Source: Ceratothoa steindachneri (taxonomy: Eukaryota; Arthropoda; Malacostraca; Isopoda; Cymothoidae). Taken from it: a DNA stretch of 64,000 nt. The DNA lies in assembly GCA_963969495.1 (NCBI GenBank), contig OZ018320.1, positions 79,903,748-79,967,747 on the forward strand, given 5' to 3'. The notes beneath the pieces are model-generated. The model did not search any database. It was not told the origin of the DNA and saw nothing but the letters and a program-made list of their open reading frames with translations. Both the position numbers and the translations under genes were made by a program. Below, one piece after another: positions 1,523-61,974 of this stretch; position 1 is the first letter of the stretch, and the number at the start of each line of letters is the position of its first letter.

Positions 1523-2148
1523 GTGTACCGTAAACCGACCCATTCTAATTCTTATATCCATTTCTTTTCACATGATGATGTAAATATTAAAATAGCCGTT
1601 GCATCAAGTATGTTTTTGAGAGTACTTAGAATATGTGATCTTCGCTTTCTAGAAGACGAGGTTACTCATATAACCTGCAGATTTATTGAATTAGATTATC
1701 CCGTCCACGTCATCAATGTGAGTTTATCAAAAGTTAAATCTACATACTACCGTCCCAGGGATAAAAACAAAGTGAGAAACATGAAATGTCTATCTTTCCC
1801 GTTCTCTCCACTCCTTCAGCAGAATCGTAACGGAATTGTGGCATCAGGTCGGTCCCTGGAGAACCTACCTCATCGTCTCCACCCCAAGGAGTTATTTATC
1901 GAGGTCGAGCATGGTTTAAATAGCCTGTTACGATCCTTAAATCTTTCCTTTGGACCAAGCCCATGGATCACCTTAATGAGGCAGGTGTATATAAAATCCC
2001 GTGTGAATCCACTAACTGTTCCTCATTCTACATAGCAGAGACTGGGGGAACATTAAAAAACGAATATATGAACACAAAGGTGATATTAGGCGAAATAGTA
2101 CTAAATCCAGTATTTTTAACCATATTATCAATTACAACCACCAAATAG
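1523..2148 (+). pseudogene. PLE-1 RT C-terminus and GIY-YIG remnants
   Basis: Two overlapping open frames (1523-2035 and 1963-2148) cover the post-palm region of the Penelope reverse transcriptase (the RKPT..Y.HF.S.H signature) and the start of the GIY-YIG endonuclease (GVYKIPC...SFYIAETGGTLKNEY). The switch of frame near 1975 and the inserted patch at 1817-1885 show it is not a working gene. In the GIY-YIG core the usual YIGET/YIGQT reads YIAET. Confidence 0.8.
1817..1885 (+). repeat. 69-bp patch copied from the 3.2-kb block
   Basis: This 69-bp stretch is nearly identical (3 mismatches) to 3204-3272, 1.4 kb downstream. It interrupts PLE-1: the right-arm relative of PLE-1 reads straight through the equivalent place with its own sequence. 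One of the three differences (CGT for CGA near the start) matches the right-arm copy of the donor block rather than the left-arm one. This suggests a templated insertion or gene-conversion patch. Confidence 0.8.
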
Positions 2149-2407
2149 ATTATTCAAAATCCCCAATTATATATAATTGTAAAGATTTATGTAAAAGAAA
2201 AATTGTAGAATAGATACTAATAAGAGAAATTCCCAATTTTAATCTTTCGTATGCTCAATTGAAATGTAGCTCCTACATATTTCCGGAACCTGATTGTAAA
2301 GAGTTTAGTTAATGATCTTAGAACCCCACCTACTTTTCTCAGTTTTTTTTTCTTCTGCTGGTATTTTGAAATATTTAGTAACTTGTGTATGTTCATTCCA
2401 TTCTCAT

Positions 2408-2460
2408 TATACGACTGAAGAGTGTATAGTAAACTTAATATCGAAACTAGTCTTGTAAAT
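2408..2460 (+). ncRNA. Hammerhead-ribozyme-like motif in PLE-1 tail
   Basis: The conserved hammerhead core is present in order: helix I strand TACGA (2410-2414), CTGAAGA (2415-2421), a helix II region, GAAAC (2443-2447), a two-base TA loop, then GTC (2450-2452) as the predicted cleavage triplet, followed by helix I strand TTGTA (2453-2457), which pairs with TACGA through one G-T wobble. Helix III would be only two pairs (AC with GT). This minimal helix III is the known form in Penelope-like elements (established knowledge: PLEs encode hammerhead motifs in their terminal repeats). Helix II pairing is imperfect, so activity is uncertain. Confidence 0.75.
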
Positions 2461-2509
2461 AAATTTTATGTTCCTATACGGTGGGTTTACTATCATACTG
2501 TATACCAGC

Positions 2510-2537
2510 ACTCGGGCTGTTAGGGCTTAGCCCGAGT
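2510..2537. repeat. 9-bp inverted repeat in PLE-1 tail
   Basis: ACTCGGGCT at 2510-2518 and AGCCCGAGT at 2529-2537 form a perfect 9-bp stem with a 10-base loop. It is kept in the right arm (about 61198-61225). A related imperfect stem lies at 3971-3998. Confidence 0.8.
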
Positions 2538-2599
2538 ATAAATTTAGTAAAGTGAGCGTGCATGTGCAAGCTGATTGTAGGAGAATAGCCTAATGCTCA

Positions 2600-3335
2600 C
2601 ACGTTTCCTCACCTCCCTTCCGGGCGGGCCGCGATAGAAACCTTCTCCTTCCGGCCCAATGTCTGGTGGCCTCCCGCCGGAAGAACCCGCCGGTCATTTC
2701 AGCTAACCACTGCATTCCTTCCCGGACTGGTTTTCCGGGGATTTCCGTAAGTTTACAAAGGACGAAATGGAAGATATAATCAAGCAGCTCTCACCCTAAG
2801 AAGGGCGCTTGACATCAAATCTACTTCCGGAGCCATGTGAACCTCTCCCGAGTTTCGGGTAAAGAAGATGAATTCTTTTAACCCTTGGGAGTAGAGCTTG
2901 CACAGAGTCTGGCGGGGCTAGAATTGCCTTCTATCTCACTGTTGTGGTAAATCGTCGGAGCACCAAGTCTTCAGCGAGGAAATCGGTCCCATTTAGGGAG
3001 GCTCCTTACCCTGTTGGTCTGCAAGTCAGTGCGGACCCAGGCTCGTACTCACGTTTTCAGAGCCGAAATCTACATCCCGGCTTTTCTCCGTGACCCTACT
3101 CCTTGATAGGTCACTTCGCCCCCCTCACAGAGGCACCCATGATCCCTCGGAGTTCACGAGCGTGGGGCCCTCTTTGACAAGAAGCTCCCTTCACCGCCTT
3201 CTTCCAGCAGAATCGAGACGGAATTGTGGGATCAGGTCGGTCCCTGGAGAACCTACCTCATCGTCTCCACCCCGTATCTCACCACCTTCACCCACCAGCG
3301 CGACCCGAACATCAGATTCCAAGGTAACCCTTCCC
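2600..3335. other. GC-rich conserved block, unidentified
   Basis: This block is distinctly GC-richer than its AT-rich surroundings and is well conserved in the right arm (about 60390-61130, minus). On the plus strand, the frame ending at 3335 encodes ELWDQVGPWRTYLIVSTPYL and continues TTFTHQRDPNIRFQ up to a plausible splice donor (CAAG then GTAACC at about 3332-3336). No acceptor or start was identified and the protein family is not recognised. It could be an exon or part of an unclassified repeat; a 69-bp piece of it recurs inside PLE-1, which favours a repeat. Confidence 0.45.
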
Positions 3336-3665
3336 TTTCACATTCCCCAACTTCACCGCGAAGCTTACCAACATTAAAAGTGTATAGGGATTTGCATAGT
3401 GAACAGTTATTTACAAGCCAAGTGAGATATCCGAGCTTCACTTATTAATTTATCTCTTAAAGAACCTTATTTGTATAAATATTTTTTTCTTGTTTAGCTT
3501 CATTAAATCTTTATTTTCATATTGTTGTGTATCTAACTTCCTTTGGGTCGCTTGCTGGCAAAGTTTATTCCAATCCCTCCGTAGCCAACCTCTAAACCCA
3601 TTCAGGGCACGGGCCGAACGAAGTATAAGGAGTAGTATGACGCCCCCTCGGCATTCGTGATAATA

Positions 3666-3667
<2 letters not shown>

Positions 3668-3754: not shown

Positions 3755-3756
<2 letters not shown>

Positions 3757-3998
3757 ATTCGGGGAAAACTCCAACCACCCCTCGGCCTATTCATCGACAC
3801 TGATTTAATTTCTGCCAACACTGACTACAAGTAAGTAATTGCAGCTAATAACTCGGGCTCCTTTTATTGTGCCTGGTCGCACTTCATATATTTTCGTTCA
3901 GCGTTTGGCGGTCGTCTTAGAAGTGCCCTACCCAAAAATATCATTCGTAGCAGACGTTCACACGCGCTTGACTCGGGCTCAGAAGTTACAGTCCGAGT

Positions 3999-4553
3999 AG
4001 TTATCTATAATAGTAAAAATTAAAAGTAATTATGATTTAATTTTTTTTTAAACAATAGATTTCTATAGAGATTATGATTTAAATTTTGATGTATGAAAGG
4101 TTTCTGTTCTACAATATTCTTAAAGGAACAAAATATTATCCAGCAACTCGGTCTAATACGAACGAGCCTGGTAGGTGCAAAAAACTAACTGGCATCTCTT
4201 GTCAAGGGTACAGAACAAGCGACAGTCAGATCGGCCTCTGAGGCCTGCATTTCAATTGCACATCTGATAGGCAATTGAAATGCAGCCCCCATTCCCATAA
4301 CCTCATCGTAAAGAGCTTCGTAAACGATCTTAAACTCGCACTCCCTGATTAATGACCTTTTTATCCCGTTTTGTGTTTCTTTGTGTTTTTTTTCTGATCT
4401 GTATGCTATTTATAGACTATTTTTAAAAATTGCATTCTCAGTATACGACTGAAGAGGATATAATAAACTACGTACTGAAACTAGTCTCGTAAATTTAACT
4501 TTTGGCTCCTATACAGTGCTTTCACTATCATATACCATAACTCGCCATTGAGT
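3999..4553 (+). mobile_element. Orphan Penelope 3' tail, left arm only
   Basis: The part from about 4290 to 4535 is similar to the 3' tail of PLE-1 (2270-2500): a GTAAAGAG...GATCTTA block, a T-rich stretch, CTCAGTATACGACTGAAGAG, and a CTCCTATACAGTG...ACTATCATA block. No coding part accompanies it. The whole 555-bp segment is missing from the right arm, with GAGT at both edges (3995-3998 and 4550-4553), as expected for a deletion or insertion at 4-bp microhomology. Confidence 0.75.
4442..4493 (+). ncRNA. Second hammerhead-ribozyme-like motif
   Basis: Helix I strand TACGA (4444-4448), core CTGAAGA (4449-4455), GAAAC (4477-4481), a TA loop, GTC (4484-4486), then TCGTA (4487-4491), which pairs perfectly with TACGA. 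The layout matches the motif at 2408-2460 with a better helix I. Helix II is poorly paired here. Predicted cleavage is after C4486. Confidence 0.72.
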
Positions 4554-4560
4554 TCTTTTA

Positions 4561-4562
<2 letters not shown>

Positions 4563-4655
<93 letters not shown>

Positions 4656-4805
4656 CTTTCATGAACGCGAAAGAATGATGAAATGAATCCAGCAAACCGC
4701 AAGAAACAGTAAAACAGGATAATTTTTCTTCGGAAATGTTATTTCCTAATTCGCAAAAATTCCGTACATGGGTGGGATTCGAACCAAACACACTGAGGCA
4801 GTGTT
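4563..4805 (-). mobile_element. 5'-truncated tRNA-derived SINE with (TA)n tail
   Basis: Read on the minus strand, the unit starts near 4805, contains a pol III B-box-like GGTTCGAATCC (about 4777-4787), runs through a body ending CATTCTTTCGCGTTCATGAAAGATTT, and ends in a (TA)n tract of about 90 bp (4563-4652). The A-box half seen in the copy at 63232-63415 is missing, so this is 5' truncated, as is common for SINEs. The right-arm copy is at about 56660-56856. Confidence 0.7.
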
Positions 4806-5310
4806 AATCATGGCAGGTTTTATTGAAAGCGACGGCTAAATTTGTAAATTTTGTATTAGTAATTTTCTTTTTAATCCTCTCGATTTGTCGTCTATCGCCT
4901 TTTCTTCTCGCGTCTACTCGTAAATACGCTGCCCGAAGTTCATTGAAAACTTAAGCTTTTGATCTTAAGGAAGATATTATTAATTTAATGCATTTTTTAT
5001 AATACTTTATAAAATTGGCGCGTTTTGATACGGCACGTATTATCTTCAAAGGCAAAGTGGACAATGTTACAAGAAATTGTTTTATTTATAACAATATTTG
5101 GTTACAGACTTACTAACGAACGAAAAATGGATGCGTGTAGGCGAACTAACTCCGATTAGGGCAGGGTGGTGGGAGGAGGTAAGCTCCTTTCTCATGGTGA
5201 TAACCAGTTCGCGTTGCATTGTTTAAGCTTGTTCTGTTGCTCGGCTCTGTCCTCTTGCACTTGGAAGTATGGCGGCAGAATTGAATTGTACGTTTAACCT
5301 TGCTTGTTAT

Positions 5311-5315
<5 letters not shown>
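4806..5315. other. AT-rich stretch, no gene seen
   Basis: No coding, RNA or mobile signature was recognised. It is conserved in the right arm (about 56159-56655). Confidence 0.6.

Positions 5316-5373
<58 letters not shown>
5316..5373. repeat. (TA)n microsatellite
   Basis: About 58 bp of TA dinucleotide. The mirror copy in the right arm lies at about 56095-56158 with the same flanks. Confidence 0.95.
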
Positions 5374-5375
<2 letters not shown>

Positions 5376-5639
5376 TCAAGGAGTAGTAATTGGCGTCGAT
5401 CTTGAGTACAGTTTATAATTATGTATTCTCCTCCATCTGAAAAACACGAAGTTTGCCTTAACAGAAAATTGATAGTTTAATCGTTAAATGTCGAAGTTTA
5501 CGTTGAGATAATCGTGTTTACTCTTGATGGCTAAAGTCACATTTTTTTACTCTTCTCTATCAGATAACCCATAGAATACAAGTACTTGACTGAGTTACAT
5601 ATTCGATATTTCATGCTTTATGTTTTATAAAGGCAACAC

Positions 5640-6055
5640 TTGTAATGAACCAGGGAAAAACCATCGCTGATCCTCCTTACTATCAACAGCATGAAAGTGT
5701 AAATCAGATTCTGCGCCAAAAAACATCCAGGTCTAATCAACCGAAAGAGGGTCATTCCGAAACAAGATAATGCAAGGCCACCTTCAGAGAAGGCAACCCA
5801 AGTAAAGATGAAGTCTTTAGGCTGGCAGGTTTTACCTAACCTACTTTACTCACCAGAATTAACACTAGCAGGGTTATAACTTATTCACCTCCCCTGAAAA
5901 CTAAAAAGGGGGTGGGGGTGAAACATTCAGAAATAATAAAGAAGTCAAGACAGCGTTCGATTCCCTTTTCTCTACTCAAAACCTTTTCCGTGCAATCAGC
6001 AAACTGGTTTCGCGGTGGGCAAATGTAATCCCTAATGATGGCCATAATGTTTATG
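5640..6055 (+). pseudogene. Mariner transposase C-terminal relic
   Basis: A degenerate frame contains the mariner pattern in order: a VIPKQDNARPPSEKAT block (the catalytic HDNARPH motif, with Gln for His), LGWQVLPNLLYSPELTLA (the HPPYSPDLAPSD motif, degraded), then after a frame change EVKTAFDSLFSTQNLFRAIS and RWANVIPNDGHNV (the C-terminal end). Stops and indels make it non-functional. It resembles the Hsmar/irritans type rather than MLE-A. The right-arm copy lies at about 55416-55831. Confidence 0.8.
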
Positions 6056-6139
6056 AGAGTAAATATTTTTATTAAAATAATTTACGTAAAATGTGACATT
6101 ACCTTTCCTTATGTCTAATGTCATCACATATTTTCATTT

Positions 6140-6320
6140 CCTATGCTCGTATCTTCGGGGCGTTCGAAAGCGTAGGTGGAGAGCGTGCTGGATTTTAAAA
6201 CAAAAAGTTCGATTCCAGACGCGGTAACTAAAAACCCAGTGTTGGCTACGTTCGTTGAAGACTCCTAGTTACCAACCTACATGGTAGCTTGCGGCCCCAA
6301 GCTTATCATGATGAAAAAAA
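6140..6320 (+). mobile_element. tRNA-derived SINE (SINE-2)
   Basis: The segment GTAGGTGGAGAGCGTGCTGG resembles a tRNA D-arm and A box. It is followed about 35 bases later by AGTTCGATTCC, a 10/11 match to the pol III B box GGTTCGANTCC. The downstream body (about 6225-6320) has no coding content. This is the arrangement of a tRNA-derived SINE. The mirror copy is at about 55151-55331. Confidence 0.6.
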
Positions 6321-8375
6321 TCCAGGAAGATGATGATATCTTCACAACTTTCTTCACGGATCTCTTCTTACAAAGTTTGAGCGAAGGATTCCCTCGTTTA
6401 AACTTCACCCCTCTTTTCACCCCCCGTTTATACATCTTTGTGTGCTCTTATCATAATGACATTAAAAACCATGGAAAAATCACATTCCCCTACCTCACAT
6501 GCCCACGTATATCAAAATGACTCACTCACGCCATCTTTTACCCAACTATGCACTTTACTTTCACTCGTGTAATTAATCTTCAATTTGACAATAATTTATA
6601 GTTCTTCCTTCTCAAAAAGTTCATCATTTCCTTTTCAATTCAACACACTTAACATTCAGTTTAGATCGATTTATTTCTTGCTTTCTCTGCCAGCTATCTC
6701 ACTGCAATACTTAATTCAAACACACATCTCGTTCATACACCTACCTGCCTTCAACACTCAGCCGACTTATTCCTAAGTGGCTCTTGTTTTCTCGCTTCTA
6801 TACTTTACAATTGTGCAAAAGTAGTTTCACAGGATCTTTTCACTTTTAGCCACTTTTCCACTTTCAAAAGCTTTAAAACACGACCACAACAGCTACATTT
6901 TTCATAACATCAACAACAACAGCTCTTGCATTTCGGCTAATATACCACACACTATAGCAGTCTTTCACTTTTCTTGCCATTTCCTACAGTAGTAACAACC
7001 TCTGGCGTAGGTGCTATAGTCGAATACAGAACCCAGTTTGCAACACCAAATCTATTCATATTTATTTCCTCTTCCATACATACCATCATTATACAACATA
7101 TCAACTACCCCAGAAATATACAATTAACATTCTAATTACCCATAAATACTCTCTCGGTATTTCGGTGTTCTCACCTCTTTCCACAATATTACCTGCTTCT
7201 TTCTGTACCTACACTCACCTTCCTTCACATTTTATGCTTTCTTAGTTTGAGCCATCACACAATTCACTGCTTATTTTTGCCTCCTGTGCATTCCACCGTA
7301 TCTCTCTGGCATTATCTATTTGCCCCAATCAATGTTTAGCCGATATAAGCCTGCGTATTCTTCTCCACCTTACCTCCTCCATCATCCTTTCTTTATCCAC
7401 CATTCCACTTTCTATTTACAATTTTAGCATAAAACAGTTATTACAGTGCCCACTATAAGTTACTGAAATTTGTTCCACACACCAACCAATTTAATCTTAC
7501 ACAGCGCATTTATGTAGTGAGATTGTCTCATCTTTATTCACATTTTACTTTAACCACATTCCTCAATAAAATCCTTTTCAACAGGAGCAAATAGACCATT
7601 CTTTTGTTTTACCTTTCTTTTTTTTTGTGTAGTTCTCGTGTACTTAAAGAAATCTTGGTACTGAAAGAATTTGGTTCCCACATACCGGGTTTGTGAGAGT
7701 AGAAACATATCCCTCTCTCCAGTTTCATTATTTCAAGGTGTACCAGCAGTTCTGGGTATGGTATCCTTCTTTCTTTGGTCTTATCGCGCATTTGTGCATC
7801 ATACAACCATCGCCCGATTCCCATTACTAATTTCGTTGCAAGTTATTCCAAACCACTCTTTTTCATCGTTACTTAGACTATTGCAGTAGTTATATGGTAC
7901 AATCACAATAGTTTCATCTAGTAAATCACAATTTCATACACATGATTCTAGATTTCAAGTATTCACACTCAATCACTGCATCATCTCACTTCACACTCAA
8001 TAATACCCTTTACTAAACAGGAGTAATTCACTCTATTGCAATGAGGCTTTAATTAGAAGTCGAAATCGAAAGGACATTATTTTCCAGCAAGGGGAATGAA
8101 AGCAACTGGTGGGAATTTGTAAATAAGAATCAATGAATCTATTAGGGGCTAAAATCCCCTCATAATTTCATTGAATCCCATTCAGACCCAAGAGTACAAA
8201 TTTAAATCTAAATCAATGATAAACTTTTCGAGAACTCACATGTGTGTAAATAATTATTTAAGCTTTAATGATCTTTAGATATAATCAAGTTATATCTCAA
8301 GTTATATCCGAATTATAGGTTAGAAAATAAAAGGACTTAATCATGTCAGGGATTAATAATTATTAACCTCATCAG
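6321..8375. other. Intergenic or intronic AT-rich DNA
   Basis: No domain-bearing frame was recognised. Short open frames here are identical in the right arm, but only because the arms are nearly identical at DNA level in this part, so they are not evidence of coding. Upstream exons of the transporter at 8376 could lie here or beyond, but none could be supported. Confidence 0.55.
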
Positions 8376-10848
8376 GATCTGGCGTATCATCCATTTTTCT
8401 TCTATTTGTTTTTTTTGCTGGACATAATTCGGTGGCAATTATAATTATATGGCTATTGCTGGGAATGACAGGTGTTGGAACGGGCTGTAGCTACTTGGTC
8501 AGTCCCGTCGACTTAGCACCAAATTACACAGGTATGAACAAATGAAATTTGAAATAAAACATGGAATTGTCTCTCTTCGCTTCTAAGTAACGTCTTTGGG
8601 AAGGGAGGCAGCAAAAAGGATTGAAGGATGACTGGAATTAAAATTGGAATAATGCTGAAATTCAGATAGAGTTTCGTAGAATTAGGTAGCGATCTGTTCT
8701 CTGTTCGAACTTGTTCAAAACCCACAAACCCGGTCAAGATATTTAGGATGGCAAGTTTTGTTTTTTACGAAATTGCTCATTCTCAATACTTTTTCTACTC
8801 CTCATTCGGTCCCTCTTTGGCTTCTTTCTCTCCTCTCCTATGGCGCAAAATTGTGCCTTGAGCGAAAAATCCATTGCTGGTTACAGCAATTATCATTCAT
8901 ATTTAAATTAAAAACAAACAATAATTGCCCAAAAGAACCAAATCTGTCTGATTACTAAGCGAGAAATGTTAGGTGTGGTATGGAAAAAATCGAATTCTTG
9001 GACTGCCAAATTTCCGATCATCTTTACCGATCGAAGTCTTTGACTGTCATCATTGTGGTAATCCTTCCTAATCGGAGTATGACTACCATCAATCTAATAA
9101 TCTTCCCCAATGAGGTATTTGAGTGCCATCGTTCTGCTAATCCTTACCAATAAAGGTCTGTGACTGCCATCAATCTGATAATAATTACCAATAGAAGTCT
9201 TTGACTACGGTCATTTTGATAATCCTTACCAATCGAAGCCTTAGACTACCATCATTCTCTTAATCCTTACCAATCAAGGCTTGATTGCCATCCTTCTGAT
9301 AATCCTGAACAATCGAAGTGTTTGCCTGCCATACATGTGATAATACCTAACATTATGAGGGCGCAAAGTATAGAGGCAAATTAGTGAATATATTCTTAGT
9401 ATATTCAAAAATGAATTTATTCCTCCTATATGCAGCAACCTCCATGGGACTGATGGCCATAGGAAATATTGGAGCAGCTCTTGCACCCTCAATCATCTCG
9501 GCTCTCCTCGAATTAGTAAGAAGTAGTTAAATATTTTTCTTATGTCCAAATATAATCCAGTATTTGAAGTTAGAAAACAGTATCCCCTGGATCGATGAAC
9601 TGACTAACAAATAAAACGAATGCGGATACCCATCATATAAAGCAACAGCTCTATTTAGCCTAGCCGATAAGGCCTTGGACTTCCAACGCCTAGGTGTCAG
9701 GTTATGCTCATGACCACGATCGCAAAACTTCAGCGTACGTGACTTTGCCTACGAGGGGAGGTAGATACTTGCACACTTCATCACACACATAACCAATCAC
9801 AACACCGGAGTCTCTTCTTTCTGCCCCCCCGCCTTTCTTCACACACACAACATATCTACTCTTCCGTCTTTGAACTTGCCGAAAGGGGATCTATTTTCCT
9901 ACACCCTGCTGACATGGAACGGGTGAACCCCTCCTCCCTCACTGCGATTGATATTTGGTCTCTGGTTGCTTTTAAAAGTACTACACTGTTCCACCTCAAA
10001 AGAGGAACGGAGGTTAGAGGCTTCGAGCTTTCTAGCGATTGTCATTCTGCTTTTTATGCGAATTTCATTATCCGGCCTTTGCCAAAATACTAGATACCTG
10101 AAAACTGACCATATTTTTATTATTATTAATGAGTGCCAATGGGCATTTTTGTGAGGACGTTATTGAAAGGAGGAAATATAAGAGCCCGATCATCAAAAGA
10201 GGAGATTACTTGGGTCACTCGAAAGTGAGCCAGTGCAATATTCCATAGCAGAGGAGATGATCTATAATTAAGGCAGACCTCCATGAGGAAGTAAGGCCCT
10301 AGTGGCCACCAACTCTCCAGATGTCAGCTGCAGCAGGTTGTGCCTGGATACAACTAGCACCCCATTGTGGGACCGAAACACAAAAATGTCCCATATGATT
10401 TTTTTGTGCAAACTCGCGAAATACATTTGAAGAGACCAACCACAACCACAACCACAACCACAACCAAAACCACAACCACAGTCAAAATTATGACGTGGAT
10501 TACGTCGAATTCCAGCAAAAAGATTGACTAAATTTCTGAGAAAATAAAAGGAAATTCCCCCGCCCCCAAAGAATCCTAGATACGCCCCGTTTCCAGCAAA
10601 TAGAAAACTCCTCTCGATAATTTCATGACCTTATTGTTATTTTTAGGGTTCCTTTGGGGTATAATTTCTCTTATTAGGATCATGGATGGAACAAAGCATT
10701 TGATGTGGCTGCTGCTGTCAACGTGGCCTCTTGCTTTGTGTACGATGCTTTCATCCCTTCCAAACCCCAACCTTGGAACTTTGAGGAGAAGAATGGAGGA
10801 GCTAAGAGACTTGCAAACGAGTCTGAGACGGAACAAACACGTTTTTAA
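8376..10848 (+). CDS. MFS (SLC17/sialin-like) transporter, last three exons
   Basis: Three exons join with consistent phases. Exon A 8376-8531 (acceptor CTCATCAG, donor G/GTATGA) encodes two hydrophobic helices and the loop SPVDLAPNYT, matching the DLAPNYAG-type motif of SLC17 organic/phosphate anion transporters. Exon B 9436-9515 (acceptor TATGCAG, donor TTA/GTAAGA) gives ATSMGLMAIGNIGAALAPSI. Exon C 10678-10848 (acceptor CTTATTAG) gives a last helix ending with a KPQPWNFEEK tail and stop TAA 10846-10848. These correspond to the last transmembrane helices and cytosolic tail of a 12-helix carrier. Upstream exons were not found, so gene or pseudogene status of the whole is open. The acceptor of exon A is the least certain. 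A near-identical copy lies in the right arm. Confidence 0.72.
9003..9347. repeat. 41-bp minisatellite, about 8 units
   Basis: Eight diverged units of about 41 bp with the pattern GACTGCCATCAATCTGATAA followed by TCCTTACCAATCGAAGTCTTT. It lies in the intron between exons A and B of the transporter. The right-arm copy (about 52124-52468) has the same number of units. Confidence 0.85.
9655..9740 (+). mobile_element. tRNA-like SINE head remnant
   Basis: TAGCCTAGCCGATAAGGCCT resembles a tRNA A-box and D-arm, GGACTTCCAACGCC an anticodon arm, and TCAGGTTATGCTCATGA a decayed T-arm. The B box is degenerate, so a functional tRNA gene is excluded; a SINE head is the likelier reading. Mirror copy about 51731-51816. 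Confidence 0.45.
10436..10484. repeat. (CAACCA)n microsatellite
   Basis: About eight imperfect hexamer units CAACCA. The right arm has the complement at about 50994-51033. Confidence 0.9.
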
Positions 10849-14941: not shown

Positions 14942-14946
14942 ATAGT

Positions 14947-50628: not shown

Positions 50629-53095
50629 TTAAAAACGTGTTTGTTCCGTCTCAGACTCGTTTGCAAGTCTCTTAGCTCCTCCATTCTTCTCCTCAAAGTT
50701 CCAAGGTTGGGGTTTGGAAGGGATGAACGCATCGTACAAAAAGCAAGAGGCCACGTTGACAGCAGCAGCCACATCAAATGCTTTGTTCCATCCATGATCC
50801 TAATAAGAGAAATTATACCCCAAAGGAACCCTAAAAAAACAATAAGGTCATGAAATTATCGAGAGGAGTTTTCTATTTGCTGGAAACGGGGCGTATCTAG
50901 GATTCTTTGGGGGCGGGGGAATTTCCTTTTATTTTCTCAGAAATTTAGTCAATCTTTTTGCTGGAATTCGACGTAATCCACGTCATAATTTTGGCTGTGG
51001 TTGTGGTTGTGGTTGTGGTTGTGGTTGTGGTTGATCTCTTCAAATGTATTTCGCGAGTTTGCACAAAAAAATCATATGGGACATTTTTGTGTTTCGGTCC
51101 CACAATGGGGTGCTAGTTGTATCCAGGCACAACCTGCTGCAGCTGACATCTGGAGAGGTGGTGGCTACTAGGGCCTTACTTCCTCATGGAGGTCTGCCTT
51201 AATTATAGATCATCTCCTCTGCTATGGAATATTGCACTGGCTCACTTTCGAGTGACCCAAGTAATCTCCTCTTTTGATGATCGGGCTCTTATATTTCCTC
51301 CTTTCAATAACGTCCTCACAAAAATGCCCATTGGCACTCATTAATAATAATAAAAATATGGTCAGTTTTCAGGTATCTAGTATTTTGGCAAAGGCCGGAT
51401 AATGAAATTCGCATAAAAAGCAGAATGACAATCGCTAGAAAGCTCGAAGCCTCTAACCTCCGTTCCTCTTTTGAGGTGGAACAGTGTAGTACTTTTAAAA
51501 GCAACCAGAGACCAAATATCAATCGCAGTGAGGGAGGAGGGGTTCACCCGTTCCATGTCAGCAGGGTGTAGGAAAATAGATCCCCTTTCGGCAAGTTCAA
51601 AGACGGAAGAGTAGATATGTTGTGTGTGTGAAGAAAGGCGGGGGGGCAGAAAGAAGAGACTCCGGTGTTGTGATTGGTTATGTGTGTGATGAAGTGTGCA
51701 AGTATCTACCTCCTCTCGTAGGCAAAGTCACGTACGCTGAAGTTTTGCGATCGTGGTCAATGAGCATAACCCGACACCTAGGCGTTGGAAGTCCAAAGCC
51801 TTATCGGCTAGGCTAAATAGAGCTGTTGCTTTATATGATGGGTATCCGCATTCGTTTTATTTGTTAGTCAGTTCATCGATCCAGGGGATACTGTTTTCTA
51901 ACTTCAAATACTGGATTATATTTGGACATAAGAAAAATATTTAACTACTTCTTACTAATTCGAGGAGAGCCGAGATGATTGAGGGTGCAAGAGCTGCTCC
52001 AATATTTCCTATGGCCATCAGTCCCATGGAGGTTGCTGCATATAGGAGGAATAAATTCATTTTTGAATATACTAAGAATATATTCACTAATTTGCCTCTA
52101 TACTTTGCGCCCTCATAATGTTAGGTATTATCACATGTATGGCAGGCAAACACTTCGATTGTTCAGGATTATCAGAAGGATGGCAATCAAGCCTTGATTG
52201 GTAAGGATTAAGAGAATGATGGTAGTCTAAGGCTTCGATTGGTAAGGATTATCAAAATGACCGTAGTCAAAGACTTCTATTGGTAATTATTATCAGATTG
52301 ATGGCAGTCACAGACCTTTATTGGTAAGGATTAGCAGAACGATGGCACTCAAATACCTCATTGGGGAAGATTATTAGATTGATGGTAGTCATACTCCGAT
52401 TAGGAAGGATTACCACAATGATGACAGTCAAAGACTTCGATCGGTAAAGATGATCGGAAATTTGGCAGTCCAAGAATTCGATTTTTTCCATACCACACCT
52501 AACATTTCTCGCTTAGTAATCAGACAGATTTGGTTCTTTTGGGCAATTATTGTTTGTTTTTAATTTAAATATGAATGATAATTGCTGTAACCAGCAATGG
52601 ATTTTTCGCTCAAGGCACAATTTTGCGCCATAGGAGAGGAGAGAAAGAAGCCAAAGAGGGACCGAATGAGGAGTAGAAAAAGTATTGAGAATGAGCAATT
52701 TCGTAAAAAACAAAACTTGCCATCCTAAATATCTTGACCGGGTTTGTGGGTTTTGAACAAGTTCGAACAGAGAACAGATCGCTACCTAATTCTACGAAAC
52801 TCTATCTGAATTTCAGCATTATTCCAATTTTAATTCCAGTCATCCTCCAATCCTTTTTGCTGCCTCCCTTCCCAAAGACGTTACTTAGAAGCGAAGAGAG
52901 ACAATTCCATGTTTTATTTCAAATTTCATTTGTTCATACCTGTGTAATTTGGTGCTAAGTCGACGGGACTGACCAAGTAGCTACAGCCCGTTCCAACACC
53001 TGTCATTCCCAGCAATAGCCATATAATTATAATTGCCACCGAATTATGTCCAGCAAAAAAAACAAATAGAAGAAAAATGGATGATACGCCAGATC
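50629..53095 (-). CDS. MFS (SLC17-like) transporter, last three exons, right copy
   Basis: Mirror of the left gene with every splice site kept: exon A 53095-52940, exon B 52035-51956, exon C 50799-50629 (stop TAA at 50631-50629). Exons A and B appear unchanged from the left copy; exon C differs by one Val to Leu change (GTG to TTG) and a silent change. Both copies could therefore encode the same carboxy-terminal membrane helices. As in the left arm no upstream exons were recognised. If the inverted repeat is real this would be a duplicated gene end; if it is an assembly artefact this is the other allele. Confidence 0.68.
50994..51033. repeat. (TGTGGT)n microsatellite, right copy
   Basis: Mirror of 10436-10484 with slightly fewer units. 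Confidence 0.9.
51731..51816 (-). mobile_element. tRNA-like SINE head remnant, right copy
   Basis: Mirror of 9655-9740 with a few substitutions and one extra base in the T-arm region. Confidence 0.42.
52124..52468. repeat. 41-bp minisatellite, right copy
   Basis: Mirror of 9003-9347, same unit count. Confidence 0.85.
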
Positions 53096-55150
53096 CTGAT
53101 GAGGTTAATAATTATTAATCCCTGACATGATTAAGTCCTTTTATTTTCTAACCTATAATTCGGATATAACTTGAGATATAACTTGCTCATATCTAAAGAT
53201 GATTAAAGCTTAAATAATTATTTCCACACATGTGAGTTCTCGAAAAGTTTATCATTGATTTAGATTTAAATTTGTACTCTTGTGTCTGAATGGGATTCAA
53301 TGAAATTATGAGGGGATTTTAGCCCCTAATAGATTCATTGATTCTTATTTACAAATTCCCACCAGTTGCTTTCATTCCCCTTGCTGGAAAATAATGTCCT
53401 TTCGATTTCGACTTCTAATTAAAGCCTCATTGCAATAGAGTGAATTACTCCTGTTTAGTAAAGGGTATTATTGAGTGTGAAGTGAGATGATGCAGTGATT
53501 GAGTGTGAATACTTGAAATCTAGAATCATGTGTATGAAATTGTGATTTACTAGATGAAACTATTGTGATTGTACCATATAACTACTGCAATAGTCTAAGT
53601 AACGATGAAAAAGAGTGGTTTGGAATAACTTGCAACGAAATTAGTAATGGGAATCGGGCGATGGTTGTATGATGCACAAATGCGCGATAAGACCAAAGAA
53701 AGAAGGATACCATACCCAGAACTGCTGGTACACCTTGAAATAATGAAACTGGAGAGAGGGATATGTTTCTACTCTCACAAACCCGGTATGTGGGAACCAA
53801 ATTCTTTCAGTACCAAGATTTCTTTAAGTACACGAGAACTACACAAAAAAAAAGAAAGGTAAAACAAAAGAATGGTCTATTTGCTCCTGTTGAAAAGGAT
53901 TTTATTGAGGAATGTGGTTAAAGTAAAATGTGAATAAAGATGAGACAATCTCACTACATAAATGCGCTGTGTAAGATTAAATTGGTTGGTGTGTGGAACA
54001 AATTTCAGTAACTTATAGTGGGCACTGTAATAACTGTTTTATGCTAAAATTGTAAATAGAAAGTGGAATGGTGGATAAAGAAAGGATGATGGAGGAGGTA
54101 AGGTGGAGAAGAATACGCAGGCTTATATCGGCTAAACATTGATTGGGGCAAATAGATAATGCCAGAGAGATACGGTGGAATGCACAGGAGGCAAAAATAA
54201 GCAGTGAATTGTGTGATGGCTCAAACTAAGAAAGCATAAAATGTGAAGGAAGGTGAGTGTAGGTACAGAAAGAAGCAGGTAATATTGTGGAAAGAGGTGA
54301 GAACACCGAAATACCGAGAGAGTATTTATGGGTAATTAGAATGTTAATTGTATATTTCTGGGGTAGTTGATATGTTGTATAATGATGGTATGTATGGAAG
54401 AGGAAATAAATATGAATAGATTTGGTGTTGCAAATTGGGTTCTGTATTCGACTATAGCACCTACGCCAGAGGTTGTTACTACTGTAGGAAATGGCAAGAA
54501 AAGTGAAAGACTGCTATAGTGTGTGGTATATTAGCCGAAATGCAAGAACTGCTGTTGTTGGTGTTATTTAAAATGTAGCTGTTGTGGTCGTGTTTTAAAG
54601 CTTTTGAAAGTGCAAAAGTGGCTAAAAGTGAAAAGATCCTGTGAAACTACTTTTGCACAATTGTAAAGTATAGAAGCGAGAAAACAAGAGCCACTTAGGA
54701 ATAAGTCGGCTGAGTGTTGAAGGCAGGTAGGTGTATGAACGAGCTGTGTGTTTGAATTAAGTATTGCAGTGAGATAGCTGGCAGAGAAAGCAAGAAATAA
54801 ATCGATCTAAACTGAATGTTAAGTGTGTTGAATTGAAAAGGAAATGATGAACTTTTTGAGAAGGAAGAACTATAAATTATTGTCAAATTGAAGATTAATT
54901 ACACGAGTGAAAGTAAAGTGCATAGTTGGGTAAAAGATGGCGTGAGTGAGTCATTTTGATATACGTGGGCATGTGAGGTAGGAGAATGTGATTTTTCCAT
55001 GGTTTTTAATGTCATTATGATAAGAGCACACAAAGATGTATAAACGGGGGGTGAAAAGAGGGGTGAAGTTTAAACGAGGGAATCCTTCGCTCAAACTTTG
55101 TAAGAAGAGATCCGTGAAGAAAGTTGTGAAGATATCATCATCTTCCTGGA
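53096..55150. other. Right-arm AT-rich DNA, no gene seen
   Basis: Mirror of 6321-8375 at about 99% identity. Confidence 0.6.
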
Positions 55151-55331
55151 TTTTTTTCATCATGATAAGCTTGGGGCCGCAAGCTACCATGTAGGTTGGT
55201 AACTAGGAGTCTTCAACGAACGTATCCAACACTGGGTTTTTAGTTACCGCGTCTGGAATCGAACCTTTTGTTTTAAAATCCAGCACGCTCTCCACCTACG
55301 CTTCCGAACGCCCCGAAGATACGAGCATAGG
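55151..55331 (-). mobile_element. SINE-2, right copy
   Basis: Mirror of the tRNA-derived SINE at 6140-6320, B-box match GGAATCGAACC on this strand at about 55255-55265. Confidence 0.58.
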
Positions 55332-55415
55332 AAATGAAAATATGTGATGACATTAGACATAAGGAAAGGTAATGTCGCATTTTACGTAAATTATTTTAAT
55401 AAACATATTTACTCT

Positions 55416-55831
55416 CATAAACATTATGGCCATCATTAGGGATTACATTTGCCCACCGCGAAACCAGTTTGTTGATTACACGGAAAAGGTTTTGAGTAGA
55501 GAAAAGGAAATCGAACGCTGTCTCGACTTCTTTATTATTTCTGAATGTTTCACCCCCACCCCCTTTTTAGTTTTCAGGGGAGGTGAATAAGTGAAAACCT
55601 GGTGGTTTTAATTCTGGTGAGTAAAGTAGGTTAGGTAAAACCTCCCAGCCTAAAGACCTCATCTTTACTTGGGTTGCCTTCTCTGAAGGTGGCCTTGCAT
55701 TATCTTGTTTCGGAATGACCCTCTTTCGGTTGATTAGACCTGGATGTTTTTTGGCGCAGAATCTGATTTACACTTTCATGCTGTTGTTAGCAAGGAGGAT
55801 CAGAGATGGTTTTTCCCTGGTTCATTACAAG
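55416..55831 (-). pseudogene. Mariner relic, right copy
   Basis: Mirror of the mariner C-terminal relic at 5640-6055, with the same breaks plus a few substitutions. Confidence 0.75.
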
Positions 55832-56093
55832 TGTTGCCTTTATAAAACATAAAGCATGAAATATCGAATATGTAACTCAGTCAAGTACTTGTATTCTATG
55901 GGTTATGTGATAGAGAAGAGTAAAAAAATGTGACTTTAGCCATCAAGAGTAAACACGATTATCTCAACGTAAACTTCGACATTTAACGTTAAACTATCAA
56001 TTTTCTGTTAAGGCAAACTTCGTGTTTTTCAGATGGAGGAGAATACATAATTATAATCTGTACTCAAGATCGACGCCAATTACTACTCCTTGA

Positions 56094-56094
<1 letters not shown>

Positions 56095-56158
<64 letters not shown>
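56095..56158. repeat. (TA)n microsatellite, right copy
   Basis: Mirror of 5316-5373, about 6 bp longer. Confidence 0.95.
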
Positions 56159-56162
<4 letters not shown>

Positions 56163-56659
56163 AAAACAAGCAAGGTTAAACGTACAATTCAATTCTGCCG
56201 CCATACTTCCAAGTGCAAGAGGACGGAGCCGAGCAACAGAACAAGCTTAAACAATGCAACGCGAACTGGTTATCACCATGAGAAAGGAGCTTAACCTCCT
56301 CCCACCACCCTGCCCTAATCGGAGTTAGTTCGCCTACACGCTTCCATTTTTCCTTCGTTAGTAAGTCTGTAACCAAATATTGTTATAAATAAAACAATTT
56401 CTTGTAACATTGTCCACTTTGCCTTTGAAGATAATACGTGCCGTATCGAAACGCGCCAATTTTATAAGGTATTATAAAAAATGCATTAAATTAATAATAT
56501 CTTCCTTAAGATAAAAAAAAAGCTTAAGTTTTCAATGAACTTCGGGCAGCGTATTTACGAGTAGACGCGAGAAGAAAAGGCGATAGACGACAAATCGAGA
56601 GGATTAAAAAGAAAATTACTAATACAAAATTTACAAAAATAGCCGTCGCTTTCAATAAA

Positions 56660-56812
56660 ACCTGCACTGATTAACAGTGCCTCAGTGTGTTTGGTTCGAA
56701 TCCCACCCATGTACGGAATTTTTGCGAATTAGGAAATAACATTTCCGAAGAAAAATTATCCTGTTTTACTGTTTCTTGCGGTTTGCTGGATTCATTTCAT
56801 CATTCTTTCACG

Positions 56813-56860
<48 letters not shown>

Positions 56861-56875
56861 CTTTCATGAACTCGG
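56660..56875 (+). mobile_element. tRNA-derived SINE with inverted (TA)n tail
   Basis: Mirror of the SINE at 4563-4805; the B box GGTTCGAATCC is at about 56693-56703. The body runs to CTTTCACGTTCA (56814), then a short (TA)n (56816-56856), then AAATCTTTCATGAAC (56856-56871). That last stretch is the reverse complement of the normal SINE end, so tail and last 12 bases appear inverted in place between GTTCA and TGAAC. Confidence 0.68.
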
Positions 56876-57113
56876 ACTGTAACTTCTGAGCCCGAGTCAA
56901 GCGCGTGTGAACGTCTGCTACGAATCATATTTTTGGACAGGGCACTTCTTAGACGACCGCCAAACGCTGAACGAAAATATATGAAGTGCGACCAGGCACA
57001 ATAAAAGGAGCCCGAGTTATTAGCTGCAACTACTTACTTGTAGTCAGTGTTGGCAGAAATTAAATCAGTGTCGATGAATAGGCCGAGGGGTGGTTGGAGT
57101 TTTCCCCGAATCT

Positions 57114-57114
<1 letters not shown>

Positions 57115-57181
<67 letters not shown>
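57115..57181. repeat. (TA)n array on 5' side of PLE-2
   Basis: TA dinucleotides interrupted once near 57120 (TATATTATA). The outer flank CCCCGAATCT equals the left-arm flank at 3755-3764. Confidence 0.95.
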
Positions 57182-57186
<5 letters not shown>

Positions 57187-59445
57187 ATGAATGCCGCGTT
57201 TTCTTTCTCTATTCAGTTTCCACTTCTGAGTTGTGTAGTAACTGCGTTCTCCAAATCCCTTTGTGATGCGCACTGCACAAGAATCCGTCTCAAGTTCTTA
57301 AAAAAATGCTTGTCTGAACAAGTTCTACCCAAATCTTTACTTCCATACCATCTAAGAAGATATGATCATCACCCTTTTAATGAATTTAGCTCCATGATGT
57401 TAAAACGCCACATAGCCGCCGCCAAGCAAGAAGAAAAAGAAAAATTTAAGGAATTGAAGGAAGCTAGACTCACATTCGGTTTCTCCATTCCCGCCGATTG
57501 GAAGTACTCGTTGCGACAAGAAATCTATGGAAAACTTCGTAGAACTACTGATGTCTTAACAAAGAAACTGGATAAGAAAGTAAAATCTCTTATTGCCACT
57601 AGTGATTGGACGAATAATGTACGTAAAAATTGTGTTGTTAATTTGTCAAGCAAAGAAATTAGTGAAAACGTTGTTTGTGCACTCGGTTACGGTTTATCCT
57701 TCTCCGTTTCAAGTAGACCCTCCACCTTAACTATTGCGTCTGCCCTTTGCAAATTTGAAAAATACTGTGAGCTTCCCCCAAATCAGGTTGACATAATTAC
57801 AGGTATTATTTATGGGGCCACCAATGTTAGTCATGAAAGTAATTTCCCCGCTCGGTATAAAAAAAGCTTGGCCGATCTTAAAAAAGATAACGCATTATAT
57901 ATCACAAAAGCCGACAAGTCGAATATGTAGTATCGTAATTCTTGATAAAAATGATTACATATCGCGCATGCATGCCCTACTGGCTGACGGTGTGACTTAC
58001 AGAAAATTAACAAGGAACCCCTTAGATCAAGTTATTAAACATTTCAATACTATACTGAAAAAAATCCTTAAAGATAAGAAGGAATTAATAGGTGTTTTGT
58101 CAGAAAAATCTCCCTCGTTACCCTACTTATACGGGTTGGTAAAAACACACAAAGATAACAACCCTATGCGGCCTATTATTAGCACAGTTGGTTCAGTTTC
58201 ATATAAATTATCAAAATATATTACCAAACTGTTGTCCCCTTTACTTGGAACAATATCTGGTTCTCATTTACTAAACTCCCTTGACTTAATAGAAAAATTA
58301 AATCAAATTACTATTTGCCCCAATGATAGGTTGGTAAGTTTTGAAGTTTGCTCTCTCTCTTTACCAAAGTCCCTATTGATTCCATTTTAGATTATCTTAG
58401 TTATGAGCTTACTTATCACGAATTACCTCTATCTGTAAGTCATATTATTTCACTCATTAAGTTGTGCATTTGTGACTGTAAGTTCGTTTTTAATGGTGAA
58501 TTTTACCAACAAATATTTGGTATGGCAATGGGCAACCCCTTATCTCCCCTACTCTCAAATTTGTATATGGAATTCTTCGAAAAACAATATTTACCTAATA
58601 TCATTGATATCCCCTTAAAGTGGTATAGATATGTTGATGACATTTTAATTATTTTGCCTTTTAATATTGATGTAAATAATTTGCTTTCCAATTTAAATAA
58701 CCAGGTACCTTCCATAAAATTTACTGTTGAATTAGAGAAAGACAATTGCCTTTCATTCTTAGATGTCTTAATACATAGGGAATCATTTAATTGCAATTTT
58801 AGGATTTATAGGAAACCAACCAACAACTTAACCTATGTCCATTTTTATTCAGGCCACCATCTTAATATTAAGATATCAATTTTTTCCTCTATGTTTTTAC
58901 GTGCGTTGCGCATTGTCAGTCCTCAATATTTGGATCAGGAAATTGAATCTATAAGAAAAATCGGTGCAGACTTGTGTTATTCAGAAAATATACTTGATAT
59001 TTGTTATAATAAAGCCAAAAAAAAGTTTTATAACGAAAGTACTATTGAGAAGGAAGCGCCCAAGAATATCCTCATTTTACCTTATTTTAATGGCTTTGAA
59101 ACCGTAAAAACATTGTTAAAAACACTTAATGTAAATCTTGTTTCCTCTTATACTAATACTTTAAAAAGAATGTTAATAAAAAATTGCCTTAATGAAACAA
59201 ATAACGTAATTTATAAAATCCCTTGTTTGGATTGCCCTTCATTTTATATTGGGCAAACTAGCAAGGATCTGAATGTGCGTATTAAGCAACATAAGTACTC
59301 TGTAAGCACTGGGCAAACATCAAATGCCATTTTTATCCATTTGAGTGAAAATTCCCATCGTATTAATTGGAAGGAGAGTTCTGTGATTGCCAAATCAAAT
59401 GACTTTTTTTCACGAAATCTTTTAGAATCAGCATTTATACAATGA
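57187..59445 (+). pseudogene. PLE-2 reverse transcriptase-GIY-YIG protein, two frameshifts
   Basis: The first frame (Met at 57187 to 57930) is the N-terminal region (LGYGLSF) ending in LYITKADKSN. The second (to 58390) has NDYISRMHALLADGVTYRKL, PYLYGLVKTHK, MRPIISTVGSVSYKLSKYI and RLVSF. The third (58348-59445) has LFTKVPID, FGMAMGNPLSPLLSNLYMEF, the intact catalytic box RYVDDIL, SFLDVLIHR, RKPTNNLTYVHF and the GIY-YIG domain YKIPCLDCPSFYIGQTSKDL (about residues 285-304). Total about 750 codons, the usual size. The enzyme copies RNA into DNA and the endonuclease nicks the target. Catalytic residues are present; only the two frameshifts disable it. Confidence 0.9.
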
Positions 59446-59968
59446 CTTCGAATTTTAATCTCAGCCCTGGAATGTATTTTTTGGACCCTTGTATCAAAAG
59501 AATGTTTAAGAATGACTTTAAAGATAAAATCTATGAATTAATGATTACCACATAGAAGTTATTTTAGCTTATTTATATAAAAAATACCTTGCCTCATATT
59601 TTTCTTCTGTCATATTTTCTAGTTATCATGTGTAAACTTTTTTTGTTTTCATATTGCATATGTGATTCCCAAACATTGCCCCCTCCTTTCTTTTGTAACC
59701 CGTAAACTTTTTTTTTTTTTTCAAACCCTGACGGCCCATCTTGTTAACAGGTTTTTTCCAGGTATCTGTTAATCCCACCCCTTTTAATCTTTATATCCCA
59801 TATTTTCCTTAATCAGGTGTATAAATATCTTTCTCTTTTTCCCTGTCTTTTAGTCTGCTCAGTAAAGGACCATTAGTCGAAAGGCCTCGCAGTTCTCCGT
59901 TGTTTCATTTTCCTCGTGGCTGTAACGTTATTCATAAATTCCTCACGTTCCTTATTTTCGTGATTCAG
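59446..59968. other. PLE-2 3' untranslated tail
   Basis: T-rich, with ATTAGTCGAAAGGCCTCG at about 59872-59890, a GTCGAAAG block often seen near ends of such elements. Ends at the (TA)n array. Confidence 0.6.

Positions 59969-60020
<52 letters not shown>
59969..60020. repeat. (TA)n array on 3' side of PLE-2
   Basis: TA dinucleotides, followed by TTCTATTATCACGAATGC, the mirror of the left-arm flank at 3651-3667. Confidence 0.95.
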
Positions 60021-60022
<2 letters not shown>

Positions 60023-60389
60023 TATTATCACGAATGCGGAGGGGGCGTCATACTACTCCTTATACTTCGTTCAGCCCGTGCCCTGAATGGGTTTATTGAC
60101 TCAGAGTGCTTAGAGGTTGGCTACGGAGGGATTGGAATAAACTTTGCCAGCAAGCGACCCAAAGGAAGTTAGATATACAACAATATGAAGATAAAGTTTT
60201 AATGAACGCTAAACAAGAAAAATATATATATACAAATAAGGTTCTTTAAGAGATAAATTAATAAGTGAAACTCGGATATTTCACTTGGCTTGTAAATAAC
60301 TGTTCACTATTCAAATCCCTATACACTTTTAATGTTGGTAAGCTTCGTGGTGAAGTTGGGGAATGTGAAAGGGAAAGGTTACCTTGGAA

Positions 60390-61130
60390 TCTGATGTTCG
60401 TGTCGCGCTGGTGGGTGAAGGTGGTGAGATACGGGGTGGAGACGATGAGGTAGGTTCTCCAGGGACCGACCTGATCCCACAATTCCGTCACGATTCTGCT
60501 GGAAGAAGGCAGTGACGGGAGCTTCTTGTTAAAGAGGGCCCCACGCTCGTGAACTCCGAGGGATCATTTGTTCCTCTGTGAGGGGGGCGAAGTGACCTAT
60601 CAAGGAGTAGGGTCACGGAGAAAAGCCGAGATGTAGATTTCGGCTCTGAAAACGTGAGTACGAGCCTGTGTCCGCACCGACTTGCAGACCACCGGGTTAA
60701 GCAGCCTCCCTAACTGTGACCAAAATCCTCGATGAAGATTTGGTGCTTCGTCAATTTACCACAACAGTGAGATAGAAGGCAATTCCTGCCCCGCCAGACG
60801 CTGTGAAGTCTCTACTACCAAGCGTTAAAAGAATTCATCTTTTTTACCCGAAACTCGAGAGAGGTTCACATGGCTCCGGAAGTACATTTGATGTCAAGCG
60901 ATCTTCTTAGGGTGAGAGCTGCTTGATTATTCCCTCCATTTTGTCCTTTGTAAACTTCCAGAAACCACCGGAAGCCAAGATGGGCTCCCATCTATCGATA
61001 ACCAGTCCGGGAACGAATGCGGTGGTTAGCTGAAATGGCCGGCGGGTTCTTCCGGCGGGAGGCCACCAGATATTGGGCCGGAGGGGGAAGATTGAAAACG
61101 CAGGCCGCCCGGAAGGGAGGTAGGGAAACG
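60390..61130. other. GC-rich conserved block, right copy
   Basis: Mirror of 2600-3335. The ELWDQVGPWRTYLIVSTPYL segment is unchanged on the minus strand (about 60490-60431), while the flanks differ by several substitutions. Positions 60021-60389 are plain flank DNA with no feature seen. Confidence 0.45.
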
Positions 61131-61199
61131 TGGGAGCATTAGGCTATTCTCCTACAATCAGCTTGCACATGCACGTTCACTTTACTAAATTTATACTCG

Positions 61200-61974
61200 G
61201 GCTAAGCCCGAACAGCCCGAGTGCTGGTATACAGTATGATAGTGAACCCACAGTATAGGAACATAGAATTTATTTACGAGACTAGTTTCGATATTAAGTT
61301 TACTATACCCTCTCCAGTCGTATAATGAGAATGGAATGAACACACACAAGTTACTAAATATTTCAAAATCCCAGCAAAAGAAAAAAAACCTGAGAAAAGG
61401 GGTCATTAATCAGGAGGTGTGGTTCTAAGATCATTAACTAAAATCTTTACAATCAGGTTCCGGAAATATGTAGGAGCTACATTTCAATTGAGCATACGAA
61501 AGATTAAAATTGGGAATTTCTCCTATTAGTATCTATTCTACAATTTTTCTTTTACATAAATCTTTACAATTATATATAATTGGGGATTGTAATTGATAAT
61601 ATGGTTAAAAATACTGGATGTAGTACTGTTTCACCTGACATCACCTTTGTGTTCATATATTCGTTTTTTAATGTTCTTCCAGTCTCTGCTATGTAGAATG
61701 AGGAACATTTAGTGGATCCACACGGGATTACATATACACCTGCCTCATTTGGCTGATCCGTGGGCTTGATCGAAGGGAAAGATTTAAGGATGGAAAGAAG
61801 ATATTGAAACGAGGCTCGAACTAAAGAAATAACTCTGTTTACTCCTTTGAGATGGGGAGAGAACGGGAGAGATAGACAATTCGTGTTACTCACTTTGTTA
61901 TTATCGTTAGGACGGTTTGATAAACTCTCATTGACGATGTGTTTAGAGGTGGGTAGTCTAATTCCCCCTTCCAC
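61200..61974 (-). mobile_element. Degenerate Penelope-like element, right relative of PLE-1
   Basis: On the minus strand 61974-61570 is open for 134 codons and holds the region before the endonuclease (NCLSLPFSPHLKGVNRVISL) and the GIY-YIG start GVYVIPCGSTKCSSFYIAET. The tail holds the hammerhead-like motif. Homology to the left arm fades at about 61960, marking the outer limit of the inverted repeat. Confidence 0.8.
61273..61324 (-). ncRNA. Hammerhead-ribozyme-like motif with core change
   Basis: Mirror of the motif at 2408-2460: TACGA and TCGTA helix I strands pair perfectly here and GAAAC-TA-GTC is intact. The core reads CTGGAGA instead of CTGAAGA, altering an invariant A, so this copy is probably inactive. 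Helix II pairs better than in the left copy (GGTAT with ATATC). Confidence 0.68.

What the first reader, a model, noticed from the sequence alone, without database searches (positions are those of the whole stretch)
1680..61960. 60-kb inverted repeat with ~27-30 kb arms
Nearly every feature from about 1.7 to 28.5 kb reappears in reverse complement from 61.96 to 32.24 kb (for example 7671-7889 with 53582-53800, 9274-9492 with 51979-52197). This is either a genuine large palindrome, rare outside sex chromosomes and amplicons, or two haplotypes assembled head to head. Transposon presence/absence between arms fits both.
Basis: partly seen in the sequence, partly recalled or inferred. Interest (0 to 1): 0.85.

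Follow-up and report, generated by a model that had tools for sequence, protein, structure and literature searches.

The report
Large inverted duplication around sulfotransferase gene
A 25-30 kb stretch of animal DNA, perhaps from a crustacean, is followed by a diverged mirror-image copy that lacks the first exon of a gene, which looks more like an old real duplication than two mis-joined parental copies, though only sequencing reads can settle it.

Summary
The inverted repeat is real in the sequence. Core arms are 3755-28544 and 57113-32238, with 405 differences in 16,948 aligned bases (2.39%). An outer block, 1889-3667 / 61835-60021, is 6.8% diverged and fades outward; it may be two retroelement copies. 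A 3.7-kb single-copy spacer separates the arms. About 70% of the left arm is shared; the rest is mostly arm-specific insertion. The spacer carries exon 1 of a two-exon sulfotransferase gene whose exon 2 lies in the left arm. The right arm holds exon 2 alone; 3 of its 4 coding differences change the protein, one in the conserved RYED motif. A gypsy-like element found only in the left arm has LTRs 4.95% diverged, more than most of the arms. Divergence is 5.5% within 100 bp of block ends and 0.34% in the middle of the longest block, as expected if the arms have exchanged sequence. I favour a genuine inverted duplication that truncated the second gene copy, later homogenised patchily. A head-to-head join of two haplotypes is not excluded: no reads, depth or parent genome were available, and the genome search did not complete. 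The structure belongs to a known kind; interest is moderate.

The parts
3755..28544 (+). left arm, core (with left-only insertions inside)
   Evidence: inverted match to 57113-32238, 405/16948 differences
32238..57113 (-). right arm, core (with right-only insertions inside)
1889..3667 (+). outer block, left; adjoins Penelope-like coding sequence (1056-1804); arm membership uncertain
   Evidence: 120/1757 differences against 61835-60021, fading outward; tblastn 33-40% to the right-arm Penelope-like ORF; no Pfam match for ORFs 1385-2032 and 61573-61977
60021..61835 (-). outer block, right
28545..32237 (.). single-copy spacer
   Evidence: no inverted counterpart in the arms at relaxed settings
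28755..29545 (-). sulfotransferase exon 1, single copy in the window
   Evidence: relatives P0001 and P0002 at 49% identity end at the aligned position
24549..24858 (-). sulfotransferase exon 2, left arm
   Evidence: splice sites in frame; Pfam PF00685 and PF13469 on the spliced protein
43508..43817 (+). sulfotransferase exon 2, right arm, without exon 1
   Evidence: 3 nonsynonymous and 1 synonymous difference; no second exon 1 in the window
30027..30288 (+). spacer direct repeat, copy 1
   Evidence: 17/262 differences to copy 2
31975..32238 (+). spacer direct repeat, copy 2, ending within a base or two of the right arm's inner end
14947..21571 (+). gypsy-like LTR element, left arm only, 5-bp target duplication
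   Evidence: empty site in the right arm; LTRs 61/1232 different; RNase H domains
11121..11558 (.). 438-bp insertion, left arm only
3999..4620 (.). insertion running into a (TA)n tract, left arm only
57181..59969 (+). Penelope-like element inside a (TA)n tract, right arm only
   Evidence: RVT_1 above cut-off, GIY-YIG just below it; related proteins; TA tracts on both sides
33800..41423 (.). right-arm-only block of retroelement pieces; left arm has about 73 bp there that the right lacks
   Evidence: DUF7041 and RNase H above cut-off; two RVT_1 matches below it
45435..45536 (.). 102-bp insertion, right arm only

Best explanation
A genuine inverted segmental duplication. An ancestral segment holding the 3' exon of a sulfotransferase gene was copied in reverse next to the gene, with the breakpoint in the gene's intron, so the right copy never had exon 1. 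Transposons then entered each arm separately. Stretches of long uninterrupted identity between the arms have since been partly homogenised by arm-to-arm gene conversion. Shown: anatomy, exon copy without exon 1, arm-specific insertions, divergence pattern. Inferred: that both arms lie on one chromosome, the copying mechanism, and that the homogenisation is between arms and not between alleles.
For: (1) Left arm plus spacer give an in-frame two-exon gene; the right arm has exon 2 only, with 3 of 4 coding differences nonsynonymous, including D to N in RYED, where D is present in all four other sequences compared: the left copy, P0003, P0004 and PDB 22ga. That is what an unexpressed fragment would accumulate. 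(2) Spacer repeat copy 2 ends within a base or two of where the right arm begins, and no third copy was found in the window; a template switch through the spacer would give this. Its divergence, 17/262, is like that of arm sequence near block ends, 66/1200. (3) The left-only gypsy-like element has LTR divergence of 61/1232, above the core-arm mean of 405/16948; only 8.8% of 1232-column windows of the core reach it. So much of the arm sequence was probably homogenised after that insertion. (4) In the core, divergence falls with distance from block ends, from 66/1200 within 100 bp to 5/1468 at 2.5 kb or more; circular-shift p = 0.0055. (5) 2.4-5.5% exceeds the heterozygosity quoted for four decapods, 0.19-0.53% (PMC7069360, passages). 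(6) No N in the window, so no scaffold gap sits at the junction.
Against: No reads, depth or second assembly. Points 3 and 4 also fit two alleles with ordinary recombination; polymorphism raised near indels is reported within a species (PMC5127803, abstract). The distance effect is weaker without the longest block (p = 0.062), and the 0.34% figure comes from that one block. Four coding differences are few, and two of the three changed residues are not conserved in the relatives compared. The host species is not established, and some crustaceans are more variable: 1.3% in a mud crab (PMC6393678, abstract in listing) and 19 SNPs per kb across sampled white shrimps (PMC6341167, passage). The outer flanks left in the window are short (1.7 and 2.0 kb) and hold transposon pieces, so homology could continue outside.
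Confidence: 0.6

Rival explanations
1. Assembly artefact: two diverged haplotypes of one locus were joined head to head near the sulfotransferase intron. The right haplotype's contig ended before exon 1 and was joined to the left one through or near the spacer repeat.
For: Collinear arms with transposon presence/absence and SNP-level divergence look allelic. The junction lies at a repeat terminus. Heterogeneous divergence is normal between alleles (one search shows it here; the rule is from general knowledge).
Against: A missed-adapter read would give near-identical arms at the centre and no spacer; here the inner block differs at 32/1521 sites across a 3.7-kb spacer. A repeat-mediated join needs the spacer repeat in both haplotypes, in opposite orientation and at different sites, though the window holds only two copies, 17/262 diverged. 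Exon 2 differences are mostly nonsynonymous.
Confidence: 0.33
2. A giant mobile unit with very long terminal inverted repeats, like the palindromic M-locus unit of the housefly, moved as one piece.
For: Similar anatomy: palindrome arms with a 3-kb spacer (PMC11252125 section 7).
Against: If the outer block belongs to the arms, they have no sharp outer ends: similarity fades over several hundred bases. None of the ORFs of the core arms that I scanned (a part of all ORFs) matched a transposase model. No dedicated search for terminal repeats or target duplications at the outer ends was run.
Confidence: 0.04

Closest known systems
Palindromes with arm-to-arm gene conversion (mammalian Y, recalled; housefly M-V locus)
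   Same: Two inverted arms, a spacer of about 3 kb, insertions/deletions between arms (M-V: 3046-bp spacer; PMC11252125, passages and section 7)
   Different: Here only a gene fragment is duplicated and core identity is about 97.6%; the M-V text read reports high arm identity and one synonymous difference between two intact gene copies; no evidence of sex linkage here; M-V has terminal repeats with a 9-bp duplication, not shown here
Inverted gene pairs of Caenorhabditis
   Same: Inverted duplicates thought to be kept alike by gene conversion (PMC1803023, passages)
   Different: One such locus has 2207-bp arms and a 126-bp spacer with paralogous genes; here arms are about 25 kb and one copy is truncated
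False duplication from unmerged haplotypes (general knowledge)
   Same: Collinear, few-percent diverged, transposon presence/absence
   Different: Inverted and contiguous with no gap; the centre is a single-copy spacer

Membership tests
Genuine palindrome / inverted segmental duplication | long inverted arms in one contiguous sequence | tested here: met
   no N in window
Genuine palindrome / inverted segmental duplication | both arms on the same chromosome molecule (spanning reads, full depth) | not testable with these tools
   no reads; the genome search unanswered
Genuine palindrome / inverted segmental duplication | arm-to-arm gene conversion | tested here: inconclusive
   divergence pattern fits but allelic recombination would give the same
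Head-to-head haplotype join | divergence within the species' heterozygosity | tested here: inconclusive
   2.39% core against 0.19-0.53% for four decapods, 1.3% for a mud crab and 19 SNPs per kb across white shrimps; species unknown
Head-to-head haplotype join | gene content equal in both arms up to the join, under the same constraint | tested here: inconclusive
   exon 2 shared with 3 of 4 differences nonsynonymous; exon 1 lies beyond the arm end
Giant terminal-inverted-repeat transposon | sharp outer ends with target-site duplication | tested here: inconclusive
   gradual loss of similarity at the outer block; if the arms end at the (TA)n tract instead, the end could be sharp; no dedicated search for a target duplication was run
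Missed-adapter chimeric read | near-identical arms at the centre, no spacer | tested here: not met
   32/1521 differences in the inner block; spacer of 3,693 bp

The most novel reading that the evidence does not exclude
A roughly 25-kb autosomal or sex-linked animal palindrome, made by template switching through its own spacer (which left the 264-bp direct duplication at the junction), in which arm-to-arm gene conversion still runs but is blocked next to transposon insertions, so that insertions set the local divergence.
Probability: 0.25. Interest if true: 0.6.

Novelty: new member of a known kind. Interest (0 to 1): 0.35.

Why it matters
If real, it is a natural test of how transposon insertions stop gene conversion between palindrome arms: one locus holds blocks of 0.2 to 6.5 kb between heterologies, plus LTR and spacer-repeat clocks. 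If an artefact, it is a concrete false duplication that would double a gene fragment in annotation.

Tried and rejected
Missed-adapter chimera: rejected. LTR-type element 30027-32238 with 262-bp terminal repeats: no matching target duplication seen at its ends and no LTR hallmark beyond a loose TG..CA, so not adopted. tRNA-derived SINE for the spacer repeat: it holds a B-box-like string (recalled motif) but at the wrong end; ARAGORN found no tRNA in 29900-32400; Rfam gave 0 matches at gathering threshold in the window and one sub-threshold match in 28000-34600, inside exon 1 and not in the repeat; a 31-base piece of the repeat had 0 exact matches in viral contigs and in genome contigs, which says little, as those collections are of viral, bacterial and archaeal sequence. 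Other host genes in the arms: none of 10 further left-arm ORFs matched Pfam, nor did window:13152-13631; other ORFs of the arms were not scanned. Organism: the Penelope-like query returned 453 proteins, 120 listed; the one row naming an organism is Cherax quadricarinatus (58% identity over 62% of the query), a hint of crustacean only, since transposon similarity does not fix a species. Two other listed rows bore 'hypothetical protein', the rest no name.

Full report
Observation. Self-comparison gives one collinear inverted chain across the window. Blocks, left / right: 1889-3667 / 61835-60021, 3755-3998 / 57113-56870, 4653-11120 / 56856-50355, 11559-14946 / 50357-46961, 21572-23000 / 46965-45537, 22998-26951 / 45434-41424, 27024-28544 / 33799-32238. 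Differences per aligned base: 120/1757, 5/244, 76/6459, 143/3378, 41/1416, 108/3930, 32/1521, in all 525 of 18,705. Two of two quoted example pairs are 219/219 identical.

Insertions. Left only: 3999-4620, 11121-11558, and a gypsy-like element 14947-21571 with a 5-bp target duplication and an empty site in the right arm (the label gypsy is from recall, the domains are RNase H and a gag-like ORF). Right only: 45435-45536, a Penelope-like element 57181-59969 lying inside a (TA)n tract, and a block 33800-41423 with retroelement pieces. Pfam support is mixed: in the Penelope-like ORF RVT_1 is above its cut-off and GIY-YIG just below; in the block DUF7041 and RNase H are above and two RVT_1 matches below. 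That block is not a simple insertion: the left arm has about 73 bp there that the right arm lacks.

Outer ends. Left of and into the outer block lies Penelope-like coding sequence (1056-1804, tblastn 33-40% to the right-arm element); Pfam gave no match for the ORFs 1385-2032 and 61573-61977 themselves. Divergence of the block per 100-bp window runs from 1 to 20 differences, highest at the outer edge, beyond which similarity drops to about 70% and then vanishes. The left element extends to about 1056, while the match in the right arm ends at about 61964. Either the arms end here, or they end at the (TA)n tract at 3668-3754 / 57114-57180 and the outer block is two copies of one element. I could not decide. 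Flanks left in the window are too short to show whether homology resumes outside.

Centre. The spacer 28545-32237 has no inverted counterpart in the arms. It contains exon 1 (28755-29545, minus strand) of a sulfotransferase; exon 2 is at 24549-24858 in the left arm; donor, acceptor and frame agree. The spliced 367-residue protein matches PF00685 (6e-12) and PF13469 (1.1e-10), both above the curated cut-offs. Two relatives of exon 1 at 49% identity stop at the aligned position. The right arm carries exon 2 (43508-43817) without exon 1: a translated search of the whole window finds exon 1 once, other matches having E of 0.39 or more. Exon 2 differs at four codons: D to N, R to W, H to L, and one silent. 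The D lies in RYED and is D in all four other sequences compared (left copy, P0003, P0004, 22ga_A). The R is R in 22ga_A but not in P0003 or P0004; the H is not conserved, and P0004 has the L of the right arm there. With so few differences this is suggestive only.

Junction. A 262-264 bp direct repeat occurs at 30027-30288 and 31975-32238, and no third copy was found in the window; the second copy ends within a base or two of where the right arm begins. As a templated copy made during duplication this is natural; as two independent transposon insertions it is a coincidence, but repeats are also where assemblies break.

Clocks. LTR pair 61/1232 = 4.95% (95% interval 3.8-6.3); spacer repeats 17/262 = 6.5% (3.8-10.2); core within 100 bp of a block end 66/1200 = 5.5% (4.3-6.9); core overall 405/16948 = 2.39%; core 2.5 kb or more from a block end 5/1468 = 0.34%, all from the longest block. 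BLAST counted 13 mismatches and 3 gap openings for the spacer repeats, the global alignment 17 differences. Right beside the LTR insertion the arms differ by 22/501 and 22/499, close to the LTR figure. The intervals ignore clustering of differences, which is strong (variance 8.7 times Poisson over 37 windows, outer block included). Against shifts of the pattern within blocks, the fall with distance has p = 0.0075 for all blocks, 0.0055 for the core and 0.062 for the core without the 6.5-kb block. A single history fits: separation at about 5%, LTR insertion soon after, later homogenisation where identity is uninterrupted. Two alleles with ordinary recombination can produce the same pattern.

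Which is it? For decapods, quoted heterozygosity is 0.44% (Cherax quadricarinatus), 0.53%, 0.19% and 0.21% (PMC7069360, passages) and 1.3% for a mud crab (PMC6393678, abstract in listing), all below the core divergence; but 19 SNPs per kb across white shrimps (PMC6341167, passage) comes near it, and the window's species is not established. I put 0.6 on a genuine inverted duplication, 0.33 on a haplotype join. Paper searches for palindromes, assembly artefacts and conversion were made; they returned the analogues named, but I did not look for, and so do not claim, absence of this locus from print.

Noticed in passing
57114-60020: A Penelope-like element sits inside a (TA)n microsatellite; the left-only insertion 3999-4620 and the left outer block also abut long TA tracts, which suggests target preference.
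   Followed up: partly
158-1030 and 62464-62799: Mariner-like transposase fragments outside both arms (the left one with HTH matches just below Pfam cut-offs, including the Mos1 HTH model; the right one named from recall, no Pfam match).
   Followed up: partly
8998-9345 and 52126-52473: A roughly 41-bp tandem repeat shared by both arms, in the least diverged stretch of the arms.
   Followed up: no
30837-31114: A 50-bp purine-rich tandem repeat in the spacer between the two direct-repeat copies.
   Followed up: no
15426-15645 and 20698-21036: The gypsy-like LTRs contain an 86-90 bp tandem repeat whose copy number differs between the two LTRs.
   Followed up: no
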